A stretch of DNA of 64,000 nt from Sandaracinus amylolyticus (GTDB lineage: Bacteria; Myxococcota_A; Polyangia; Polyangiales; Sandaracinaceae), in assembly GCF_000737325.1 (NCBI RefSeq), contig NZ_CP011125.1, positions 5,332,001-5,396,000 on the forward strand, read 5' to 3'. The notes under the pieces were generated by a model. The model searched no databases. It worked only from the letters and a program-made list of their open reading frames with translations, and was not told where the DNA came from. Within the stretch, counting starts at the first letter, position 1. Every line of letters begins with the position of its first letter. The position numbers and the translations under genes were made by a program. Shown here piece after piece: positions 2,168 to 51,275 of this stretch.

Positions 2168-3685
2168 TCAGAGCGACGGTCGCCACGCGATCGCGGGCGG
2201 CATGATGATGCCCGCGACGTCGATTCCGCCGCCGAAGACGCCGTCGTTCGTGAGGGCCGCGCCCTCGCGGATCACCGCTGCGTCCCAGCCCGCCGGCATC
2301 ACCGCGCGCTGCGAGACGACGCCGAGCGCGCTCCCCGCCGCGCGTGCGCGCACGTTCGTGAGCGACACGCTCGCGGGCGCGGCGCCGCCGAGATCGACGA
2401 GCAACCCGGCGCGCGCGTTGTCGTCGAGCGCCACGTCGGCGAGCACGATCGCGGGCATCGGCGCGGTCCCCGACGCGCGCCGCACGAGCACGCCGTCGCC
2501 GAGCTCGACCGTGCCCGAGGTGCTCGGCACCGGCGCGCGCACCTGGCGCGCGACGGTCGACCCACGCACCTCGACGCGCTCGGCATCGATCGCGACGACG
2601 CCTGCGCCGTCGCCGCCTTCGAGGTCGAGCGCGCGCGCCACGAGCGAGCCGCCCTGCACCTGCACCGCGGGCGCGCCGAGGCCCGACGCAATCACGCCAT
2701 CGATCGCGACCGCGCTGCGATCGGCGAACACGCCGTACCCGGCCCCGTTCTCGACGCGCAGATCGGCGATCTCGACGCGCGGCGACGACACCGCGGACAC
2801 CGCGATCGCCGGCACGCCATTGCCCGCGAAGAGGTCGGTGATGCGCACGCCGCGCACGCGCACGTCGGACTCGAACGCGGAGACGACGATGCCGCGCACG
2901 TCGTCCGCGTCGGGCTCGACGTCGGTGTCGATCACCTCGAGCACGCTGCGCTCCACCGAGAGGCCGCCGACCGCGAGCCCGCTGATGTCGAGATCCTCGA
3001 CGCGCACGCCGCTCGCTCCGGGCGCCGCGAGATCGCCGACGTCGACCGCGACGACCGCCCACGTCCCGGTGCCGGCGGACGTGGTCGGCGCGCTCGCGGC
3101 CGCCGCTTCGAACATCGGCCCGTCGATCTTCACCGAGCGCATCACGACGCGCTCACGCCCACGCAGCGCGACGCCGGCGCCGCGCGCGATGTGGACCGAG
3201 ACGCGCTCCATCGTCGCGTCGCCGTCGCCCGCCGCGCGCATCGCCCAGCCGCCGCCGAGCACGTTCACGCGCAGATCACGCACCGTCGCTCCGGTGCCCT
3301 CCGCGAATTCGATCGCGGCACCGGTGTCGCCGCCGTCGACCTCGGACGTCGGGCCCTCGCCCGCGAGCGTCACGCCGGGCGGCACGACGAGCGGGCCCTC
3401 GGCGCGGCATCCCTGGCGCAGCACGACCGTGGCGCCCGGCGCGGCAGCCGCGAGCGCCGCGCGCAGATCACCGATCGCACAGACCGGGAACACGCCGGCA
3501 TCCGCCGGCATCGCGGCGTCGGGCCCGGCGCGCGAGGCTCCGTCGTCGTCGTCGTCCTCTCGCGAGCCATCGACCTCGACGCTCCCGTCGTGCCCCCCGT
3601 CGCTCGACGAGCCGCTCCCGTTCGCGCCCTGCCCCGCGCCGCAGCCGGCGAGCAGGAGCGCGAGCGCCACGCGCTTCCCCCACAT
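2168..3685 (-). CDS. Lipoprotein with parallel beta-helix repeats
   Basis: ATG 3685 follows a good ribosome binding site (ggagagg, about 10 nt upstream). The N-terminus is a lipoprotein signal (ALALLLAGCGAG), followed by a Gly/Ser/Asp-rich linker containing a run of five Asp. The remaining 430 or so residues are short alternating beta-strands with many 'VRxxxI' and 'VEIADLRVEN' turns, typical of right-handed parallel beta-helix proteins of the pectate-lyase-like superfamily. There are about a dozen coils of 20-25 residues and no obvious catalytic cluster, so it may be a surface scaffold or polysaccharide-binding protein rather than an enzyme. It lies downstream of purEK on the same strand but is separated by hairpins and probably has its own promoter. 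Confidence 0.75.
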   Translation of the reverse strand: MWGKRVALALLLAGCGAGQGANGSGSSSDGGHDGSVEVDGSREDDDDDGASRAGPDAAMPADAGVFPVCAIGDLRAALAAAAPGATVVLRQGCRAEGPLVVPPGVTLAGEGPTSEVDGGDTGAAIEFAEGTGATVRDLRVNVLGGGWAMRAAGDGDATMERVSVHIARGAGVALRGRERVVMRSVKIDGPMFEAAAASAPTTSAGTGTWAVVAVDVGDLAAPGASGVRVEDLDISGLAVGGLSVERSVLEVIDTDVEPDADDVRGIVVSAFESDVRVRGVRITDLFAGNGVPAIAVSAVSSPRVEIADLRVENGAGYGVFADRSAVAIDGVIASGLGAPAVQVQGGSLVARALDLEGGDGAGVVAIDAERVEVRGSTVARQVRAPVPSTSGTVELGDGVLVRRASGTAPMPAIVLADVALDDNARAGLLVDLGGAAPASVSLTNVRARAAGSALGVVSQRAVMPAGWDAAVIREGAALTNDGVFGGGIDVAGIIMPPAIAWRPSL

Positions 3686-3701
3686 GAGCGCTAGCACCTC
3701 T

Positions 3702-3779
3702 CCGGAACTTCGTTCCGGTGATTTCCCCCTCGTGCTGCCGACCGGACGTTCGATACGGAACGAGCGACCCGTCGGCAGC
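3702..3779. terminator. Hairpins downstream of purK
   Basis: A small hairpin with 7-nt arms (3702-3708 and 3712-3718) lies next to a larger one with 9-nt arms, gctgccgac at 3734-3742 and its complement at 3771-3779. They sit between the purK stop and the start of the lipoprotein gene on the same strand. This could be a terminator for purEK or leader structure of the lipoprotein mRNA. No clear T-run is present. Confidence 0.4.
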
Positions 3780-3822
3780 CGAGGTGTGACCGGAGCTGCG
3801 CTCCGCGGCACGCGCGATTCTG

Positions 3823-4922
3823 TCAGAGCGCGTCGACGACGCGGAGAACCTCGGCCAGACGCGCGTCGCGGCCCGCCTCGTCGTCCGCACGCACGGTCAC
3901 GTGACCGACCTTCCGGCCCGGGCGCGGCTCCTTGCCGTACAGGTGCAGGTGCGCGCCGTCGATCGCGAGGATGGACGCGGGCTCGGGCAGCGCGCCGACG
4001 AGGTTCACCATCGCGGCGTGGCCGTGCAGCGCGGTCGAGCCGAGCGGCAGCCCCGCGACCGCGCGCAGGTGGCTCTCGAACTGGCTCGTCTCCGCGGCCT
4101 CGATCGTGTGGTGACCGGTGTTGTGGACGCGCGGCGCCATCTCGTTCGCGAGCAGTCGATCGCCCGCCTGGAACAGCTCGAGCGCGAGCACGCCGACGTA
4201 GTCGAGCGACTCGAGGATCGCGCGCAGGTACGCGCGCGCCGTCTCCTCGATCGCGATGGTCGCGCGCGCGGGCGCGATGCTCACGCGGAGGATCCCGTCG
4301 CGGTGCACGTTCTCGGCGAGCGGATAGAACGCGATCGATCCGTCCGCGCCGCGCACGCCGAGCTGCGAGACCTCGCGCTCGAACGCGACGAAGCCCTCGA
4401 GGATCGAGGGGCGCGCGCCGAGCGCGGTGAACGCGCCATCGACGTCCTGCATCGTCCGCAGCACGCGCTGGCCCTTGCCGTCGTAGCCCATCGTGCGCGT
4501 CTTGAGCACCGCGGGCAGGCCGATCGTCGCGACCGCGGCGCGCAGATCGTCCTCGGAGTCGATCGCCGCGAAGGGCGGCGTGTCGATGCCGAGCTCGCGG
4601 AAGAGCGTCTTCTCCTCGATGCGATCGGCCGCGACGCGCAGCGCGTCGATCGAAGGGCGCAGCGGCACCTTCGCGCCCACGCGACGCACCGCCTCGAGCG
4701 GCACGTTCTCGAACTCGTAGGTCGCGACGTCGATGCGCGACGCGAATTCGTCGAGCGCCGCGGGATCGTCCCACGCGCCGATCACGTGCTCGCCCACCGC
4801 GCACGCGGGCTCGTCGGGCTGCTGCGCGTACGCGACGCAGCGCACGCCCATCGGGTGCCCCGCGAGCGCGAGCATGCGACCGAGCTGACCAGCGCCGAGC
4901 ACTCCGACGCGCATCGTGCGGC

Positions 4923-36799: not shown

Positions 36800-38602
36800 A
36801 TGACGTCGTCTGGTGCACGCAGCTCGCATCCGGCCTCGCGCGACGCCGTGCCATCCGAGGAGATCATCGAGATCTCGCTCGCGAGCAGCAGCATCGTCGA
36901 GGTCGCGCCCGAAGCTGCGCGCGCGCTCGCGCCGGACGCGACGATGCCCGAGCGCATCGGGCGCTATCGACTGCTCCACGAGCTCGGCCGCGGCGCGATG
37001 GCGCGCGTGCACGTCGCGGTGACGCACGGGCCCGCGGGCTTCGAGCACCTCGCCGCGATCAAGACGCTGCTCGACTGCTACACGCACCTCGACGAGTTCA
37101 ACACGATGCTGCTCGACGAGGCGCGCCTCGGCGCCGCGATCCGGCACCCGAACGTCGTCGAGACGCTCTCGGTCGGCATCGATCCGATCGCGGGCCCCTT
37201 CCTCGTCATGCAGTACGTCGAGGGCGTCACGCTCGCGACGCTGCTCAAGCGCGCGCGCGAGCAAGGGCGCGTGATGCCCACGCGCGTGATCGTCCGCATC
37301 CTCGCCGACATGCTCGAGGGCCTCGCGGCGGCGCACGCGGTGCGCGGTCCGGACGGCGAGCCGATGCGCATCGTGCATCGCGACGTGAGCCCGCAGAACG
37401 TGCTCGTCGGCGTCGACGGCGTCGCGAAGGTCTCGGACTTCGGCGTCGCGAAGGCGAAGGCGCGCCTCACCACGACGCAGGCCGGACAGTTCAAGGGCAA
37501 GGCGTCGTACTCGTCGCCCGAGCACGTCGCGGGCGAGCAGGTCGACGAGCGCGCCGACGTGTTCTCGGCGGGCGTGATGCTCTGGGAAGGGCTCACGGCG
37601 CAGCGGCTCTTCAAGGGCGACATGGTCACGTCGATGCGCCGCGTGCTCACCGAGCCGATCCCGTGGGTCTCGCGCATCGCGCCGCAGCACGAGGCGTTCG
37701 ACGAGATCGCGGCGCGCGCGCTCGAGCGCACCCGCGAGCGACGCTTCCAGTCCGCCGACGCGATGCTCGAGGCGCTGATGCGCGTCGCGGAGGAGACGGG
37801 CGTGGTGGGCACGCACCGCGAGGTCGCGGCGTTCGTGTCGCTCACGTGCGGCGACGGCATCGAGTCCGATCGACGCGTCATCGCGCACCACCGCACGCTC
37901 GCGAGAGACGCGCCCAAGCGCGACGCGTCCTCGGACGCGATCGACATCACGATCCCGACGCCGCCTCCGGCGTCGATGGCGCAGGACGCGCACGACGCGC
38001 GGAAGCGCCGCGCGTCGGCGCGGCTCGACACCATCAAGGTGCGCGTCGCGCAGCGGAAGCAGCGCTCGGCCGCGCGCGTCGTGGGGCTCGCCGCGGTCAC
38101 GCTCGCGGCGCTGACGCTCGCGTTCGTGGTCGCGCGCGTGGTGCGGCCGCACGTGGTCGCGACGCCGATCGCGGCGACGACGCTGCCGGTCGAGACCGAG
38201 GCCGAGACCGAGGCCGTGGCCGAGGCCGTGACCGAGGCCGTGACCGAGGCCGAGGCCGAGGCCGTGATCGAGCCCGTCATCGTGACGCTGCCTGCGGCTG
38301 CCGCGGAGCCCGACGCCGAGGCACCGCCGCCGCCGGTGCAGGTGCGGCGCGAGCCTCGACGTGCACGGCCGGTCGCGCCGGCTCCGCCTGCCGACGACGA
38401 CGCGCCGATCGCGCCGACGCCCGAGACCGAAGCGGCGCCGGAGCTCTCGACGAGCGCGACCGCGGTGGTGCTCGCCGCGCGTGACGCCGTGCGCGCGATG
38501 GAGACCGACGACGAGAGCGAGAGCGAGCCCGACGCGCTCACGCGCGAACCGCCCGACCTCGATCACCAGCCGATCGCGGCGGTCCAGCCCCCTGCGCCGT
38601 GA
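36800..38602 (+). CDS. Membrane Ser/Thr protein kinase (Pkn type)
   Basis: 600 residues. ATG 36800 follows gagagga. The cytoplasmic kinase domain spans about 54-330: P-loop LGRGAMARV (62-70), Lys88 in AAIK, HRD at 193-195 in IVHRDVSPQNVL, DFG at 213-215, and YSSPE in the activation segment. This is an active-type Hanks kinase. One membrane segment (AAVTLAALTLAFVVARVV) lies near 435. The C-terminal extracytoplasmic part is low complexity: a Thr/Glu/Ala array encoded by a GAGGCC hexamer tract, then Pro/Ala-rich sequence. No ligand domain is seen. It converges directly on the TPR gene ending at 38603. Confidence 0.92.
   Translation: MTSSGARSSHPASRDAVPSEEIIEISLASSSIVEVAPEAARALAPDATMPERIGRYRLLHELGRGAMARVHVAVTHGPAGFEHLAAIKTLLDCYTHLDEFNTMLLDEARLGAAIRHPNVVETLSVGIDPIAGPFLVMQYVEGVTLATLLKRAREQGRVMPTRVIVRILADMLEGLAAAHAVRGPDGEPMRIVHRDVSPQNVLVGVDGVAKVSDFGVAKAKARLTTTQAGQFKGKASYSSPEHVAGEQVDERADVFSAGVMLWEGLTAQRLFKGDMVTSMRRVLTEPIPWVSRIAPQHEAFDEIAARALERTRERRFQSADAMLEALMRVAEETGVVGTHREVAAFVSLTCGDGIESDRRVIAHHRTLARDAPKRDASSDAIDITIPTPPPASMAQDAHDARKRRASARLDTIKVRVAQRKQRSAARVVGLAAVTLAALTLAFVVARVVRPHVVATPIAATTLPVETEAETEAVAEAVTEAVTEAEAEAVIEPVIVTLPAAAAEPDAEAPPPPVQVRREPRRARPVAPAPPADDDAPIAPTPETEAAPELSTSATAVVLAARDAVRAMETDDESESEPDALTREPPDLDHQPIAAVQPPAP
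38192..38277 (+). repeat. In-frame GAGGCC-type hexamer tract inside the kinase gene
   Basis: About 14 hexamers of GAGGCC, GAGACC, GTGGCC and GTGACC encode a Glu/Ala/Thr/Val dipeptide-like array just after the membrane segment of the kinase. Six-base units keep the frame, so unit number can change without loss of function. The same unit forms the two intergenic arrays at 48761-48931 and 49545-49655. Confidence 0.75.
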
Positions 38603-42037: not shown

Positions 42038-42239
42038 CGCTCTGCTCGTCGGTGAGGGGGAGCGCGGCAGCGACGTCCGTGACGCGCGCGCCGCACGATC
42101 CCGGGTTTCGGCGCGAAGCGAGCTGCGTTGCGCGCGAAGACGCGCGCACGGCGCCCGAGTGGGTCGGTGCGAGCGCAGATCGGAGCGATCGGCAGGCTCG
42201 CTGGTGGCGGGATCGTCGAGGTCGGCCTTCGGGCGTCGC

Positions 42240-42546
42240 GACGGTCGGCGGGACCGCTGAGATCAGCGTTCGGCCGCTTCGAGGGTCGAGCGGATCGCTG
42301 AGATCAGCGTTGGGCCGCTTCGAGGGTCGACCGGAACGCTGAGATCAGCGTTGGGCCGCTTCGAGGGTCGACCGGAACGCTGAGATCGACGACGGGAGCG
42401 CTTCGAGGGTCGGGCGGGACGCTGAGATCGACGACGCCAGCGCCTCGAGGGTCGAGCGAAACGCTGAGATCGACGACGGCAGCGCTTCGAGGGTCGAGCG
42501 GACCGCTCAGGTCGACGACGACGGCCACGCCAGGGTCGGTCACATC
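42240..42546. repeat. Tandem repeat of 41-42 bp, about seven units
   Basis: Unit starts (gctgagatc) lie at 42256, 42297, 42338, 42379, 42421, 42463 and 42505: three 41-bp steps, then three 42-bp steps. The last units, read on the minus strand, give a 14-residue repeat (VVDLSVPLDPRSA-like), but the 41-bp units break that frame, so this is not a stable gene. A degenerate older unit can be traced upstream to about 42214. The gap 42038-42706 holds nothing else that could be recognised; 42547-42706 is unremarkable. Confidence 0.85.
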
Positions 42547-43696: not shown

Positions 43697-44050
43697 ATTC
43701 GGCTCCACGATGCCCGAAGGGCGAGTCGGTCCGCGTGAATGACGCGAGCGCGCGAAGCGCTCTCGCGTCATCACGCGTTCCCCCTACTCCACCGAGCTGC
43801 GACCATCCCTCCGCGCGCGGCCGAAGCCCTACCAGCCGGGGCGCGGGGAGGGGGCCCGCGCGCAGTTCCGCAGCGCCAACCAGCCTCCTGTACGCAGCCG
43901 AATGCGAGTCAGCGCGACGCGCTGAAGGCGCATCGCGCTGACGAGAGCCCCGGCCATCGTCCACCGAAACCGGAGCAGGTCGGATCGCGAGGACCGTCCG
44001 AGCACGGGCCCGCTTCCCGCGCCCCTCGCCGAAGCCCTACCCCGCGCGGC
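43697..44050. repeat. Dispersed repeat of about 350 bp, copy 1
   Basis: This segment is highly similar over its whole length, with small indels, to 49725-50069 in the same orientation. Shared blocks include attcggctccacga at the left, gcgcgaagcgctctcgcgtc, and gccggggcgcggggaggggg. An imperfect hairpin lies near 43741-43772. Translations in all frames shift between the copies, so conservation is at DNA or RNA level. It starts after a hypothetical lipoprotein gene and ends 7 bp before the stop of the oxoamine synthase gene. The other 60 bp back to 43634 hold nothing recognisable. Confidence 0.85.
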
Positions 44051-44056
44051 CGATCC

Positions 44057-46429: not shown

Positions 46430-46563
46430 ATGCCCGGAGCATCTCGGCCTCGTCCCCCTCGGCGCAAGCCGCTCGCTCGCATGCGCGCGCTCGGTGGCGA
46501 GGACGCCCGGTGCACGATGCCGAGACGGATCGCCCGCGCGTCCCCAACTCAGATGCACCCCGC

Positions 46564-48756
46564 ATGCGATCCCAGCGCCTCGTCGTCGGACTCCTCGCCG
46601 TCGTGCTCGCCGCCTGCGTAGAGGCTCGCGGCGCCGCGCCGGATGCAGGCTCGACGCCCGCGGTCGACGCGGCCTCGCCGATCGACGCCGCGCCCCACAC
46701 CGACGCCGGCAATCTGGACGACGCCGGCAATCTGGACGACGCCGGCAATCTGGACGACGCCGGCGCGCCCGATCACGACGGCGGCCGCTCCGACGGCGAC
46801 GCCGGCGCGATGAGCGACGCCGCGCCGCCGCCGGCGCCCGAGCTCGTCATCGCGTTCCCCCCGCCGCGCTCGCTGTTCACCGAGGCGACCCTCCGGGTGC
46901 TCGGGCGCGCGGGCGGCGTGGTCGCGGTGCGCGTGAACGGCGTGCTCGCGGAGACGGATGATGCGTTCGCGTCGTGGACCGCGATGGTCACCCTCGCCCC
47001 GGGCGAGAACGACGTCGAGGTGATCGCCGAGGCGGCGGACGGCGCCGTCGTCGCTCGACGGCTCGAGATCGAGCGCCGCGACGGCTCGCTGTTCGAGCTC
47101 GGCGATCTCGCGGGCCCGATCGGCGGCGAGCTCTTCGCGATCTCCGGACACGCGCTCGCCGCGATCGATCCGGTGCGCGGCACGCGCCGCGTCGTCGCGC
47201 GCTGGGACGATGCCTACCTCGACGGGCTCGTGTCCGACGGAACGTCGCTCTACGCGGTCGACTCCGACGCGAACCGCGTCGTCGCGCTCGATCCGGCGAG
47301 CGGCGCGCGGCGCGTGGTGTCGGACGGTGGCGCGCGCCTGTGGTGGGCGCGGGACCTCGCGTTCGATCCCGAGCGCGCGCGGCTCCTCGTGACCGACTAC
47401 TCGCGGCGGCAGGTCCTCGCGATCTCACTGGTCGACGGCGCGCGGAGCGTGCTCGCGCCGCTCGACCCGGCCGGTCCGATCGACGTGCTGCGCGGCCGTG
47501 GAGAAGCGGTCGTCGGCCACGGGGCCGCCGTGTCGACGCTCGATCTCGAGACCGGCGCGGTCACGATCCTGAGCGACGCGACGCACGGCGAGGGTCCGGC
47601 GCTCTCCTGGGTGTACGACCTCGTGCTGCGCGCCGACGACACGCTCGCGCTCACCGGACCGTCGCTCCTGCGCATCGAGACGACGGGCGAGCGTCGCGGT
47701 GACCGCACGTTGATCTCGGGCGCCGGGCGAGGCACCGGGCCGGCGCTCGGCCACGCGGTCTCGGTGCGCGTCGATCCGGCGCGCCCCGGTGTCGTGTGGG
47801 CGCTCGACATCGAGAACGACGCGGTCGTCGAGATCGATCTCGCGACCGGGGATCGGCGGTGGGTGTCGCGCGAGGGGTTCGGTGCCGGTCCGCCGCTCGG
47901 CAGCTACGAGGGCTCGCTGGAGATCGAGGACGGCCGTGCGTTCGTGGTCGAGCCACGACGTGTGATCTCCATCGATCTCGCGACGGGCGAGCGCCACGAA
48001 GTGGCGGTCGCCGACGCCGCGCTCGCGGGGCTGACGGGCGGGGTCCACGTCGACGCAGCGGGCGCCCGGGCGTGGGCGAGCGCCTCGCTGGGCGAGGCGG
48101 GCGCGCTGGTCGACGTCGATCTCGCGAGCGGTGCGCTTCGCGTGGTGTCCGATGGGACGCGGCCCGAGCAGGGCGTCGCGCTCGGTCATCCCAGGGCGCT
48201 GGCGCTCGACCCGACGAGACGCCGCGCGGTGATCTCGAGCGGCAGCGCGCTCGTCGCGGCCGACGTCACGACGGGCGCGCGCACGCTGGTCTCGAGCGGC
48301 GAGCGCGGCGACGGGCCGACGTTCACGACGGCCGCCGACATCGAGATCGCGCGCGACGGCTCGCGGGCGTGGGTCGTCTCGCAGCTCGAGGAGGCGGTGT
48401 TCGAGGTCGATCTCGAGAGCGGGCGACGCCGGGTGATCTCGGGGCCGGACGTCGGCGCGGGTCCGCCGCTCGTGTGGCCGACGGGGCTCGTCCGCGCGGC
48501 GACCGACGACGCGCTCTGGGTCGTGGTGCCGACGTTGCTCGGCGATGCGTGGGGGCTCTATCGCGTGGACCTCGCGACGGGCGAGCGCACGCAGATCTCG
48601 GGCATGGCGGCGGGTGCGGGGCCGAGCGAGTACCGCGCGTCGCGCGTCGCGCACGACGGCGTGGCCGGGCGCGTGTTCGTGACGACGCCGGGCGCGCTGA
48701 ACGCGCTGCTGGCGATCGACACGACGTTCGGGCAGCGGGTGATCGTGTCGAAGTAG
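46564..48756 (+). CDS. Lipoprotein with an NHL/YVTN-type beta-propeller
   Basis: 730 residues. ATG 46564 starts a signal with the lipobox VVLAAC. A long DAG-rich linker contains three exact copies of NLDDAG. Next an Ig-like module ([20 protein letters not shown], then [14 protein letters not shown]) and a propeller of about 10 units with the signature [13 protein letters not shown] / [13 protein letters not shown] / [13 protein letters not shown]. Such repeats occur in SMP-30/NHL-like and YVTN proteins. No catalytic residues were found. It is probably a surface-exposed structural or binding protein. A hexamer array begins 5 bp after the stop. Confidence 0.8.
46711..46764 (+). repeat. Three exact 18-bp tandem copies inside the lipoprotein linker
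   Basis: The unit aatctggacgacgccggc starts at 46711, 46729 and 46747 with no differences, coding NLDDAG three times. Exact copies suggest recent expansion by slippage. The frame is kept because the unit is a multiple of three. Confidence 0.9.
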
Positions 48757-48760
48757 AGAG

Positions 48761-48931
48761 GCCGAGTCCGAGGCCGAGGCCGAGGCCGACGCCGACGCCG
48801 ACGCCGAGGCCGAGTCCGACGCCGAGTCCGACGCCGAGTCCGACGCCGAGTCCGACGCCGAGGCCGAGTCCGACGCCGAGTCCGACGCCGAGTCCGACGC
48901 CGAGTCCGACGCCGAGGCCGAGGCCGAGTCC
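48761..48931 (+). repeat. Hexamer array 1, (GCCGAG/TCCGAC)n
   Basis: About 28 units of 6 bp, mixed gccgag, gccgac, tccgac and tccgag, with no other sequence between them. It starts just after the stop of the lipoprotein gene. Together with array 2 (49545-49655), which has the opposite orientation, it flanks the four-helix-bundle gene. The interval 48932-49067 holds no gene that could be supported. Confidence 0.9.
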
Positions 48932-49067
48932 TCGCTGCACGTGAATGAGGGCTCGGATGCGCCGCCGGCGCGCATCGCTCGCGCCGCCGAACTGCGGGCG
49001 TCACGAGCGGTGCGCGCTTCGTCGGCGGAACGTGCGGCCAGGGAGAGAGGGCGCGACTGTGACCCTT

Positions 49068-49142
49068 CCTCCTCGCCGTCTCTCTCCGGAGCACCGGGCT
49101 TCGCCCTCGCGATGCGTGCTCCGGAGAGCGCCAGCGAGGAGG
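49068..49142 (+). promoter_or_regulatory. Hairpin that encloses the ribosome binding site of the four-helix-bundle gene
   Basis: Two stems stack: 49082-49094 with 49116-49128 (13 bp, perfect) and 49068-49076 with 49134-49142 (9 bp, perfect), joined by a 5x5 internal loop. A gggcttcgccc mini-hairpin fills the apex. The outer right arm is gcgaggagg, which contains the Shine-Dalgarno core six bases before ATG 49149. Folding in RNA would hide the site. Confidence 0.7.
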
Positions 49143-49148
49143 GCGAGG

Positions 49149-49499
49149 ATGAGCGGGAACGAAGGTGTGCTCGACGTCGAGGTGGTGGCCGAACGCGCGG
49201 TCGCACGACTGGGCGAGAACGCTGCGCGATTGAGAGCCCGAAGTCGGTGGCTCGCGGATCAGGTGGAGCGCGCAGCGGGGAGTCTGCTGCTCAATCTCGG
49301 AGAGCAACGACACAACACGCGCGGCAATCGACGGCTGCGTCTCGAGACTGCCGCGGGGAGCGCGAGCGAGCTGCGCCGTGCGCTGCGATTCGCGCGTCTG
49401 TATCGCCATCTCGATGCGGCGGTCTGCGAGGAGATCGATGGAGATCTCGACCGCGTGCTCGCAATGCTCTGGCGAATGCGTCAGCGCTGCAGCACGTGA
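49149..49499 (+). CDS. Small four-helix-bundle protein (23S rRNA intervening-sequence / Avd-like)
   Basis: 116 residues, nearly all helix. The signature SLLLNLGEQRHN, followed by LRLETAAGSASELRRALRFA, matches the conserved 'NIAEG...A.GSA.E....L' pattern of the four-helix-bundle family. That family includes proteins in 23S rRNA intervening sequences and the Avd subunit of diversity-generating retroelements. The start is set by gaggaggg before ATG 49149. No reverse transcriptase or rRNA gene is visible here. Inverted hexamer arrays lie on both sides and its ribosome binding site sits in a long hairpin. Function unknown. Confidence 0.75.
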   Translation: MSGNEGVLDVEVVAERAVARLGENAARLRARSRWLADQVERAAGSLLLNLGEQRHNTRGNRRLRLETAAGSASELRRALRFARLYRHLDAAVCEEIDGDLDRVLAMLWRMRQRCST

Positions 49500-49544
49500 C
49501 AGTCGACTCGAGCCCCGGTGGCGTTCGCGCTCGCGGTCGGACCG

Positions 49545-49655
49545 GAGTCGGACTCGGTCTCGAACCCCGACGCGGTCGCGGACGCGGACTCGGCCTCGGC
49601 CTCGGCCTCGGCCTCGGTCTCGGCCTCGGTCTCGGACTCGGTCCCGGTCTCGGCC
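49545..49655 (-). repeat. Hexamer array 2, inverted relative to array 1
   Basis: On the + strand the units are ctcggc, ctcggt and ctcgga, the complements of those in array 1. The purest part is 49588-49654. The left part (49545-49587) is more degenerate. It follows the four-helix-bundle gene stop by 46 bp. Array 1 and array 2 could pair in a transcript and enclose the gene. Confidence 0.8.
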
Positions 49656-49665
49656 CCAACGCTCG

Positions 49666-49703
49666 CGCTCGATTCAGGGCGAGGCGCTCGATTCAGGGCG
49701 AGG
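49666..49703 (+). repeat. 19-bp exact tandem duplication
   Basis: The unit cgctcgattcagggcgagg occurs twice, at 49666-49684 and 49685-49703, between hexamer array 2 and copy 2 of the dispersed repeat. It may mark the boundary or insertion junction of one of these elements. Confidence 0.85.
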
Positions 49704-49724
49704 CGCGAAGCGCGAGCCCGATCC

Positions 49725-50069
49725 ATTCGGCTCCACGATGCCGAAGGCGAGTCGGTCCGCGTGATGGCGCGAGCGCGCGAAGCGCTCTCGCGTCATCACG
49801 CGTTCCCCCACCACACCGCGCTGCGTCGATTCCCCCGCGCGCGGCCGAAGCCTTACCAGCCGGGGCGCGGGGAGGGGGCCCGCGCGCAGTTCCGCAGCGC
49901 CATCCAGCCTCCGCGACACACGCGAATGCGAGCGAGCAAAGCGCGAAGCGCTGCGCGAGCGAGAGCCCCGGCCGTCGACGGTCACGCCCGAAGCAGGTCG
50001 GATCGCGAGGACTGTCCGAGCACGGGCCCCCTCCCCGCGGCCCTCACCGAAGCCCTCCCCCGCGCGGCC
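49725..50069. repeat. Dispersed repeat of about 350 bp, copy 2
   Basis: This is the second copy of the element at 43697-44050, in the same orientation. It ends 3 bp before the stop of the beta-ketoacyl-synthase-like gene, as copy 1 ends 7 bp before the stop of the oxoamine synthase. Both copies are therefore 3' neighbours of minus-strand genes. A shared imperfect hairpin lies near 49763-49798. No protein-coding gene could be supported in 49500-50072. Confidence 0.85.
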
Positions 50070-50072
50070 CCA

Positions 50073-51275
50073 TCAAGCTCGCTTGAGAACCACCGCGCTG
50101 ACGTTCCCGTAGTACCCCACGGCCGTCACGACGACGACGTCACACGAGCCGTCCACGTGCCCGCTCAGCAGAGGCCCCACCGGCGCGTCCGACGAGATCC
50201 ATGCGACCGCCGACGCCATCCCGAGCGCACCCGCCCCCGCGAAGCACTCGCCCCACATCGCCTTCGGCGCCGCGACCGCGACGTCCGGCCCGAGCACCTG
50301 CTCGATCGCGTAGAGCTCCGCGACGTCCCACTTGCGCAGGCCCGAGCAGCTCGCGCACACCGCGTCGACGCTCGAGGGCGGAAGGCCGGCGTCGTCCAGC
50401 GCGAGACGGATCGCGCGCGCCACCGCGACCGGCGACGCGTTCAAGAGGAACGCGCCCTCCGTCGGCGACTCGAACGCCGTGCCGTAGCCCGCGATCAGCG
50501 CGCGCACCTTCGCGCCGCGCGCCTCCGCCTCGGTGCGGCGCTCGACGCACAGGTACGCCGCGCCCTCGCCGAGGTGCATGCCCGCGCTCTCCGCCTGGCC
50601 CGGCGCCCAGTCCTCGTCGCCCTCCGCGAGCGCGTCGAGCTTCTGCATCGCGACGTAGAGCGGCTCGCTCAGGACGTCGCCGCCGCCGACGAGGAACGCG
50701 TCCGCGCGACGATGCGCGAGGTGCGTCTCGCACGTCAGCACCGCGTCGAGCGCGCCGCAATTGCCGTCGACGATCGTGACGTTCGGCGCGCGCAGATCCT
50801 CCCAGATGCTCACGTAGCCCGCGGCCGCGTTGATCACGGTGTTCGGGAAGCGCGCCGGGTTGATGTAGCGAGGATCCTCGAGCTCCGCGACGAGGTTCAG
50901 CTCGGTGATCGAGTCGAGCGATCCGTACGCGGTCGAGCTGCAGATGCCGATCTGATCGGGGCCGAGCTTGCCGACGAACTGGCCGTTCTGCTTGAGCCCC
51001 GCGCTCTCGAGCGCCTGCTTCGCCGCGACGATCAGGTACTTCGTGAGCTTGTCGAAGTTGCGGTGGCCCTTGTCGCCGAGGAACGCGTTCGCGTCGAAGC
51101 CGCGCACCTCCGCCGCTCGGGCGCCCGGGAGCTTCTCCGCGGGCAGCGCGGCGCACGGGCCGCCGAAGGCACGCGCGCGCGCCGCGAGCGGGTCGCCGAG
51201 CGCCGCGAGGAACCCGGCGTGATCGAGCGCGACCGGGGAGACGGTGCCGAGACCCGTGATGGCGAGCGGCTTCAT
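50073..51275 (-). CDS. Beta-ketoacyl-synthase-like protein lacking both catalytic histidines
   Basis: 400 residues with a thiolase-fold KAS layout. It begins KPLAITGLGTVSP. The nucleophile position is Cys173 in VDGNCGALDA, and LGEGAAYLCVE and a GDVLSEPLY loop are present. The first catalytic His region, usually NAHGTGT, reads VCASCSGL; the second, usually GHxxGA, reads WGECFAGAGA with Glu343, while Lys338 is kept. It may still be a thiolase-fold partner subunit or a non-condensing enzyme, as chain-length factors are. ATG 51275 was chosen. It is divergent from the lipoprotein gene at 51358. Two cysteines in VCASCS are a local oddity. Confidence 0.75.
   Translation of the reverse strand: MKPLAITGLGTVSPVALDHAGFLAALGDPLAARARAFGGPCAALPAEKLPGARAAEVRGFDANAFLGDKGHRNFDKLTKYLIVAAKQALESAGLKQNGQFVGKLGPDQIGICSSTAYGSLDSITELNLVAELEDPRYINPARFPNTVINAAAGYVSIWEDLRAPNVTIVDGNCGALDAVLTCETHLAHRRADAFLVGGGDVLSEPLYVAMQKLDALAEGDEDWAPGQAESAGMHLGEGAAYLCVERRTEAEARGAKVRALIAGYGTAFESPTEGAFLLNASPVAVARAIRLALDDAGLPPSSVDAVCASCSGLRKWDVAELYAIEQVLGPDVAVAAPKAMWGECFAGAGALGMASAVAWISSDAPVGPLLSGHVDGSCDVVVVTAVGYYGNVSAVVLKRA

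What the first reader, a model, noticed from the sequence alone, without database searches (positions are those of the whole stretch)
48757..49660. Four-helix-bundle gene enclosed by inverted hexamer arrays, with a hairpin-hidden ribosome binding site
Seen directly: a 171-nt (GCCGAG/TCCGAC) array, a 22-bp double-stem hairpin whose outer arm is the Shine-Dalgarno region of ATG 49149, a small four-helix-bundle gene, then a hexamer array of the opposite orientation. In a transcript the two arrays could pair and enclose the gene, a layout like intervening sequences in 23S rRNA that carry such genes. It may be a small RNA-based or mobile cassette. Mobility is inference.
Basis: partly seen in the sequence, partly recalled or inferred. 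Interest (0 to 1): 0.7.

Follow-up and report, generated by a model that had tools for sequence, protein, structure and literature searches.

The report
Multicopy S23-protein cassette between hexamer arrays
A short gene for a small helical protein, related to one otherwise known mainly from insertions inside ribosomal RNA genes, sits between two mirror-image repeat arrays and recurs as a discrete many-copy unit across this group of soil bacteria, so it is probably a new form of a poorly understood selfish or mobile element.

Summary
In detail: a 171-nt hexamer array, a strong hairpin whose outer arm contains the Shine-Dalgarno, a PF05635/TIGR02436 (S23, "23S rRNA-intervening sequence protein") gene, and an array of opposite orientation. 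It is not unique. This genome (10.33 Mb, probably Sandaracinus amylolyticus) has 9 such genes, a congener 13, relatives up to 31. Hexamer arrays are rare elsewhere (0 in 400 kb of the congener, 3 in 380 kb here), yet lie within 1 kb of 8/9 and 8/10 of these loci. In all 11 two-sided Sandaracinus loci tested (8 independent) the arms are inverted and share a hexamer class. The genes are under strong purifying selection (window dN/dS 0.08). In the congener one whole unit (array-leader-gene-hairpin-array, 1,230 bp) is present where this genome has a clean empty site, so unit and arrays are gained or lost together. None examined lies in rRNA. Limits: the window copy itself is syntenic in both species; array orientation is direct in other genera; solo arrays exist; ribosome-binding-site hiding is not general; no transposase was seen and no RT is needed; polarity and mechanism of movement are unknown.

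The parts
48758..48931 (+). Left hexamer array (GCCGAG/TCCGAC), beginning directly after the stop codon of the upstream 806-aa ORF
   Evidence: TRF period 6/12/54; the 24-mer (GCCGAGTCCGAC)x2 occurs nowhere else in the genome
48932..49067 (+). Spacer between left array and hairpin; no function assigned
   Evidence: Aligns with the sister-species copy L126; no Rfam match
49068..49142 (+). Leader hairpin (arms 49068-49094 / 49116-49142), outer arm holds the Shine-Dalgarno
   Evidence: conserved with one compensatory change in G002; SD mean unpaired 0.06 vs 0.345 null
49137..49142 (+). Shine-Dalgarno AGGAGG
   Evidence: sequence; 6 nt before ATG 49149
49149..49499 (+). S23 / four-helix-bundle gene, 116 aa
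   Evidence: TIGR02436 and PF05635; dN/dS 0.076 against G002
49537..49653 (-). Right hexamer array, inverted relative to the left one
   Evidence: TRF; 112-nt inverted repeat with the left array, 78% complementary; array-array duplex -172 against -90 kcal/mol for the direct-orientation control

Best explanation
The feature is one copy of a small, discrete, multicopy genetic unit: an S23 (IVS-type, four-helix-bundle) gene behind a structured RNA leader, usually followed by a 3' hairpin, enclosed by two hexamer arrays. Shown: the unit recurs at many places, its arrays belong to it, its protein is selected for function, and one entire unit with both arrays is absent cleanly from the same place in a sister species. 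Inferred: it behaves as a selfish or mobile element whose ends are the arrays; in this genus the inverted arrays close the transcript into a long double-stranded stem (or a DNA cruciform), as the terminal inverted repeats of 23S rRNA intervening sequences do, and the S23 protein binds the element's own RNA or arms in cis. Output of the protein in the window copy is probably limited by the hairpin that holds its Shine-Dalgarno. How it moves is unknown.
For: 9 PF05635 loci in this genome, 13 in the congener and 0-31 in 57 relatives. Non-syntenic copies share only a core from about -215/-250 before the start codon to +35/+50 after the stop, then homology ends at the arrays. Arrays lie within 1 kb of 8/9 (G000), 8/10 (G002), 10/11 (G007) and 4/6 (G012) loci, against 0-4% of random positions; binomial P 9e-5 to 8e-17. 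Genome-wide pattern scans: every GTGAGC-array match here lies at one S23 locus or 4 kb from it, and 60 of 62 GACGCN matches lie by three S23 genes. All 11 two-sided Sandaracinus loci pair better inverted than direct, arms sharing a hexamer class. Empty site: L070 unit 3518-4747 is missing at G000:7145256, the flanks (88% and 92% identical) abutting. dN/dS 0.00-0.10 between most copies, including unlinked paralogues with dS 0.15-0.42. 3' hairpin: mean z -2.40 (n=97) against 0.01 in controls. Window arms fold together, z -9.0.
Against: Most copies in the two Sandaracinus genomes are syntenic, the window one included, so movement is slow. Arrays are direct in G007 and mixed in G053, so pairing of the arms is not a family-wide need. 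Solo arrays without an S23 gene exist. The empty site shows no long target duplication and could be a deletion in G000. The window copy lacks the 3' hairpin. No promoter or transcript evidence.
Confidence: 0.6

Rival explanations
1. The S23 genes are ordinary host genes (for example RNA-binding regulators) amplified by slow gene duplication, and the arrays are simple-sequence repeats that expand in relaxed intergenic DNA around them.
For: Strong purifying selection; most Sandaracinus loci are syntenic; solo arrays exist, commonly in G009 and G012.
Against: Array enrichment at S23 loci is 20-fold or more in three genomes, and no array was found in 400 kb of G002; both arms of a locus share one hexamer class in mirror orientation; the empty site removes gene and both arrays together; copy number varies 0-31 among relatives.
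Confidence: 0.2
2. The units prefer to insert next to or inside pre-existing hexamer arrays; the arrays are the target, not part of the element.
For: Solo arrays of the same unit type in G009 and G012 and a few in G000; direct array orientation on both sides in G007 is what insertion into an array would give.
Against: The empty site in G000 has no array; inverted arms in Sandaracinus cannot result from insertion into one array; arrays are almost absent elsewhere in G002.
Confidence: 0.12
3. They are relatives or leftovers of diversity-generating retroelements (Avd-like protein) or another reverse-transcriptase element, mobilised in trans by an RT.
For: Avd and PF05635 proteins are reported as structurally alike (PMC10053308); G000 encodes 14 RT matches.
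Against: 7 of 29 relatives that carry S23 genes have no RT match, and copy numbers do not correlate (Spearman 0.19, P 0.15). No RT lies in the window; the nearest is more than 800 kb away.
Confidence: 0.05

Closest known systems
Intervening sequences (IVS) of bacterial 23S rRNA genes with an S23p ORF (Coxiella, Leptospira; PMC4990558)
   Same: S23/PF05635 four-helix-bundle ORF in the loop of a long stem formed by terminal inverted repeats; size range similar (about 0.4-1.2 kb); mobility long suspected, mechanism unknown.
   Different: Intergenic, not in rRNA; up to 31 copies per genome; arms are simple hexamer arrays that differ by subfamily; ORF has a good Shine-Dalgarno and strong purifying selection, whereas the Coxiella S23p is reported as probably not made and decaying.
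23S_rRNA_IVP ORFs in 16S/23S insertion sequences of CPR bacteria (PMC11270868)
   Same: Same protein family inside inserted units scattered over several sites.
   Different: Those lie in rRNA genes; no hexamer arrays are described in the passages read.
Avd accessory protein of diversity-generating retroelements (PMC10053308)
   Same: Related four-helix-bundle fold.
   Different: No RT next to the gene; RT absent from several S23-rich genomes.
Transposons or MITEs with terminal inverted repeats (general knowledge)
   Same: Discrete unit with inverted ends, many dispersed copies, an empty site.
   Different: No transposase; ends are variable simple-repeat arrays; no long target duplication seen.

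Membership tests
S23 / 23S_rRNA_IVP protein family (PF05635, TIGR02436) | Profile match over the curated cut-off | tested here: met
   TIGR02436 33.6 bits against cut-off 24; PF05635 33.6 against 33.8, marginal; all 17 aligned family members match PF05635
23S rRNA intervening sequence (IVS) | Inserted in a 23S rRNA gene | tested here: not met
   No rRNA in the window or in 16 element loci by Rfam; the window copy lies between an 806-aa ORF and a ketoacyl-synthase-like gene
23S rRNA intervening sequence (IVS) | Terminal inverted repeats that form a closing stem around the ORF | tested here: met
   112-nt arms 78% complementary; fold z -9.0; met in Sandaracinus, not in G007
23S rRNA intervening sequence (IVS) | RNase III excision from the transcript | not testable with these tools
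   needs RNA work
Diversity-generating retroelement | Reverse transcriptase next to an Avd-type gene | tested here: not met
   No PF00078 match within the window's genome range; 7 S23-bearing relatives have none at all
DNA transposon / IS | Transposase gene in the unit | tested here: not met
   The only conserved ORF of the unit is S23
DNA transposon / IS | Target-site duplication | tested here: inconclusive
   One empty site at 88-92% identity; no long duplication visible, short one cannot be judged
Group I/II intron or other described RNA family | Rfam covariance-model match | tested here: not met
   No match at gathering threshold in the window or in 16 element loci except a neighbouring tRNA

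The most novel reading that the evidence does not exclude
These units are a separate class of compact mobile RNA-protein elements: a structured leader, a cis-acting S23 protein and self-generated hexamer-array ends, moving without transposase or resident reverse transcriptase, with rRNA intervening sequences as a special case of the same class.
Probability: 0.3. Interest if true: 0.88.

Novelty: new variant of a known kind. Interest (0 to 1): 0.7.

Why it matters
S23/IVS proteins have a solved structure but no known function, and whether intervening sequences are mobile has been an open question for decades. A bacterial order that carries them in many intergenic copies, with the protein under strong selection, recognisable ends and at least one presence/absence site, gives a tractable system to test what the protein does and how such elements spread. 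The hexamer arrays would also be an unusual kind of element end.

Tried and rejected
(1) Known structured RNA: no Rfam family in the window or in 16 element loci. (2) Reverse-transcriptase dependence: not supported across 57 relatives. (3) Defence system: no PADLOC match. (4) Ribosome-binding-site hiding as a general rule: absolute in G012 and its family, moderate in the window, absent in most other clades. (5) Inverted arrays as a general rule: true in Sandaracinus only. (6) The array at 38191-38277 as a second element: it lies in a coding sequence (Glu-Thr-Glu-Ala type repeats). (7) Closest relatives of P0001, and an outgroup for the empty site, in the GTDB contig collection: nothing found. 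(8) G007 against G009 for a fresh empty site: G009 contigs break inside the arrays, so undecidable. (9) Literature for intergenic S23 units with arrays: none found in the open library, which does not prove absence.

Full report
WHAT IS IN THE WINDOW. A 171-nt (GCCGAG/TCCGAC) array runs from 48758 to 48931, starting right after the stop codon of an 806-aa ORF. A hairpin with 27-nt arms (49068-49094 / 49116-49142, 89% complementary) precedes ATG 49149, and AGGAGG (49137-49142) is in its outer arm. The 116-aa product matches TIGR02436 above its cut-off and PF05635 just below, and the family profile matches the solved S23-type proteins 2GSC and 2RLD. A period-6 array in the opposite orientation follows at 49537-49653. 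As RNA the two arrays form one long closing stem, z = -9.0.

IT IS ONE OF MANY. The window's genome is a single 10,327,335-bp contig; by size it is probably Sandaracinus amylolyticus DSM 53668T, reported as 10.33 Mb (PMC5010890, abstract; inference). It has nine PF05635 loci. The congener G002 has 13, G007 has 31, and 29 of 57 relatives have some. Copies at different places share only a core, from about 215-250 nt before the start codon to 35-50 nt after the stop, at 80-94% identity; the homology then ends at the arrays. In most clades the core has a structured leader with covarying pairs and a hairpin just after the stop codon (mean z -2.40, n = 97, against 0.01 for other genes). The window copy lacks this 3' hairpin. 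In G012 and G053 many units hold two convergent S23 genes.

THE ARRAYS BELONG TO THE UNITS. In random 20-kb pieces, period-6 arrays are rare: 3 in 380 kb of G000, 0 in 400 kb of G002, 6 in 400 kb of G007, 9 in 400 kb of G012 (some of the G000 ones appear to be coding). They lie within 1 kb of 8/9, 8/10, 10/11 and 4/6 S23 loci in those genomes (binomial P 9e-15, 7e-17, 1e-14, 9e-5). Pattern scans of the whole genome agree. In Sandaracinus each locus has two arms of the same hexamer class in inverted orientation: of 11 two-sided loci (8 independent after merging syntenic pairs), all pair far better inverted than direct, and the classes form blocks by subfamily: GCGTCR, GTGAGC, CCGAGN, CCCGCT and GGGCGA. 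The window copy and its orthologue in G002 keep inverted, matching arms although the repeat sequence itself has changed. The orientation rule does not hold elsewhere: arrays are direct in G007, and direct or inverted in G053. Solo arrays without an S23 gene exist in G000 and are common in G009 and G012.

GAIN OR LOSS AS A UNIT. The G002 locus L070 holds an array-leader-gene-hairpin-inverted-array unit at 3518-4747. In G000 the two flanks (88% and 92% identical over 3.5 and 2.7 kb) abut at position 7145256 with neither gene nor arrays. There the stop codons of two convergent genes are only 3 bp apart (TGA-GCG-TCA), which favours insertion in G002, but a deletion in G000 cannot be excluded without an outgroup; a search for one found nothing. 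No long target duplication is visible. Five loci, the window one included, are at the same place in both species; L031 and L072 lie on opposite sides of the same gene; L027, L032, L033 (G000) and L065, L067, L070, L071 (G002) had no syntenic partner among the loci compared, and an empty site was shown for L070 only. Turnover is therefore slow.

THE PROTEIN IS SELECTED. dN/dS is 0.076 for the window gene against G002, and 0.00-0.10 for most pairs, including unlinked paralogues with dS 0.15-0.42. That differs from the Coxiella IVS, whose S23p is reported as probably not translated and decaying (PMC4990558). One copy in G000 (L034) is frame-broken while its orthologue L073 is intact.

RIBOSOME-BINDING-SITE HIDING. 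In the G012 family the Shine-Dalgarno is fully paired (unpaired probability 0.001 or less against about 0.4-0.5 with shuffled upstream sequence). In the window it is 0.06 against 0.345 (6 of 60 shuffles as closed) and 0.04 in G002 (5 of 60). Most other clades show no excess. The window hairpin is conserved with one compensatory change and no broken pair. So the trait is real in some lineages, moderate here, and not a family rule.

MECHANISM. Best reading: a selfish or mobile S23 cassette related to rRNA intervening sequences, whose ends are the arrays and whose protein acts on its own RNA or arms. Shown: multicopy discrete unit, arrays as part of it, selected protein, joint presence/absence at one site. 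Inferred: mobility, cis action, stem formation in a transcript. A resident reverse transcriptase is not needed (7 of 29 S23-bearing relatives have none), no transposase is in the unit, and no known RNA family matches. The route of movement is unknown.

KNOWN OR NEW. The protein family and the idea of S23-coding intervening sequences are known; intergenic multicopy units bounded by subfamily-specific hexamer arrays were not found in the open literature searched. It fails the defining IVS feature of lying in 23S rRNA, so it is filed as an S23 family member and a new variant of the IVS-like kind, not as an IVS.

Noticed in passing
window 49701-50080 and 43697-44051: A dispersed repeat of about 355 bp (86% identical copies) next to the right array; also beside the G002 orthologue and in L030. 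A separate repeat family, with a strong hairpin GCGCGAGCGCGCGAAGCGCTCTCGCG.
   Followed up: partly
window 46430-48757: The 806-aa ORF upstream of the left array is missing at this place in G002; the synteny break falls at the left array.
   Followed up: partly
L031 (G000) and L072/L179 (G002): The same S23 subfamily lies on opposite sides of one conserved gene in the two species, with a solo array near the other side in G000; arrays seem to sit at rearrangement points.
   Followed up: partly
window 42239-42520: A separate tandem array of a 41/42-bp unit.
   Followed up: no
G000 C1 172012, 1463274, 2237593, 6480714, 8587925, 9086747, 9737454, 10316101: Eight reverse-transcriptase matches of nearly equal score and equal length, probably one multicopy element.
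   Followed up: no
G009 contig ends, for example C240 and C279: Draft assemblies break inside the hexamer arrays, so S23 units are likely under-counted in such genomes.
   Followed up: partly
L085-L090 (G012), L093-L095, L098 and L099 (G053): Units with two convergent S23 genes; in G012 each gene has its own long hairpin that sequesters the Shine-Dalgarno.
   Followed up: partly
L028/L066: S23 copy next to tRNA-Ile and a sigma-factor gene, with about 58 nt of near-perfect inverted repeat (GCACGTG type) instead of long arrays.
   Followed up: partly
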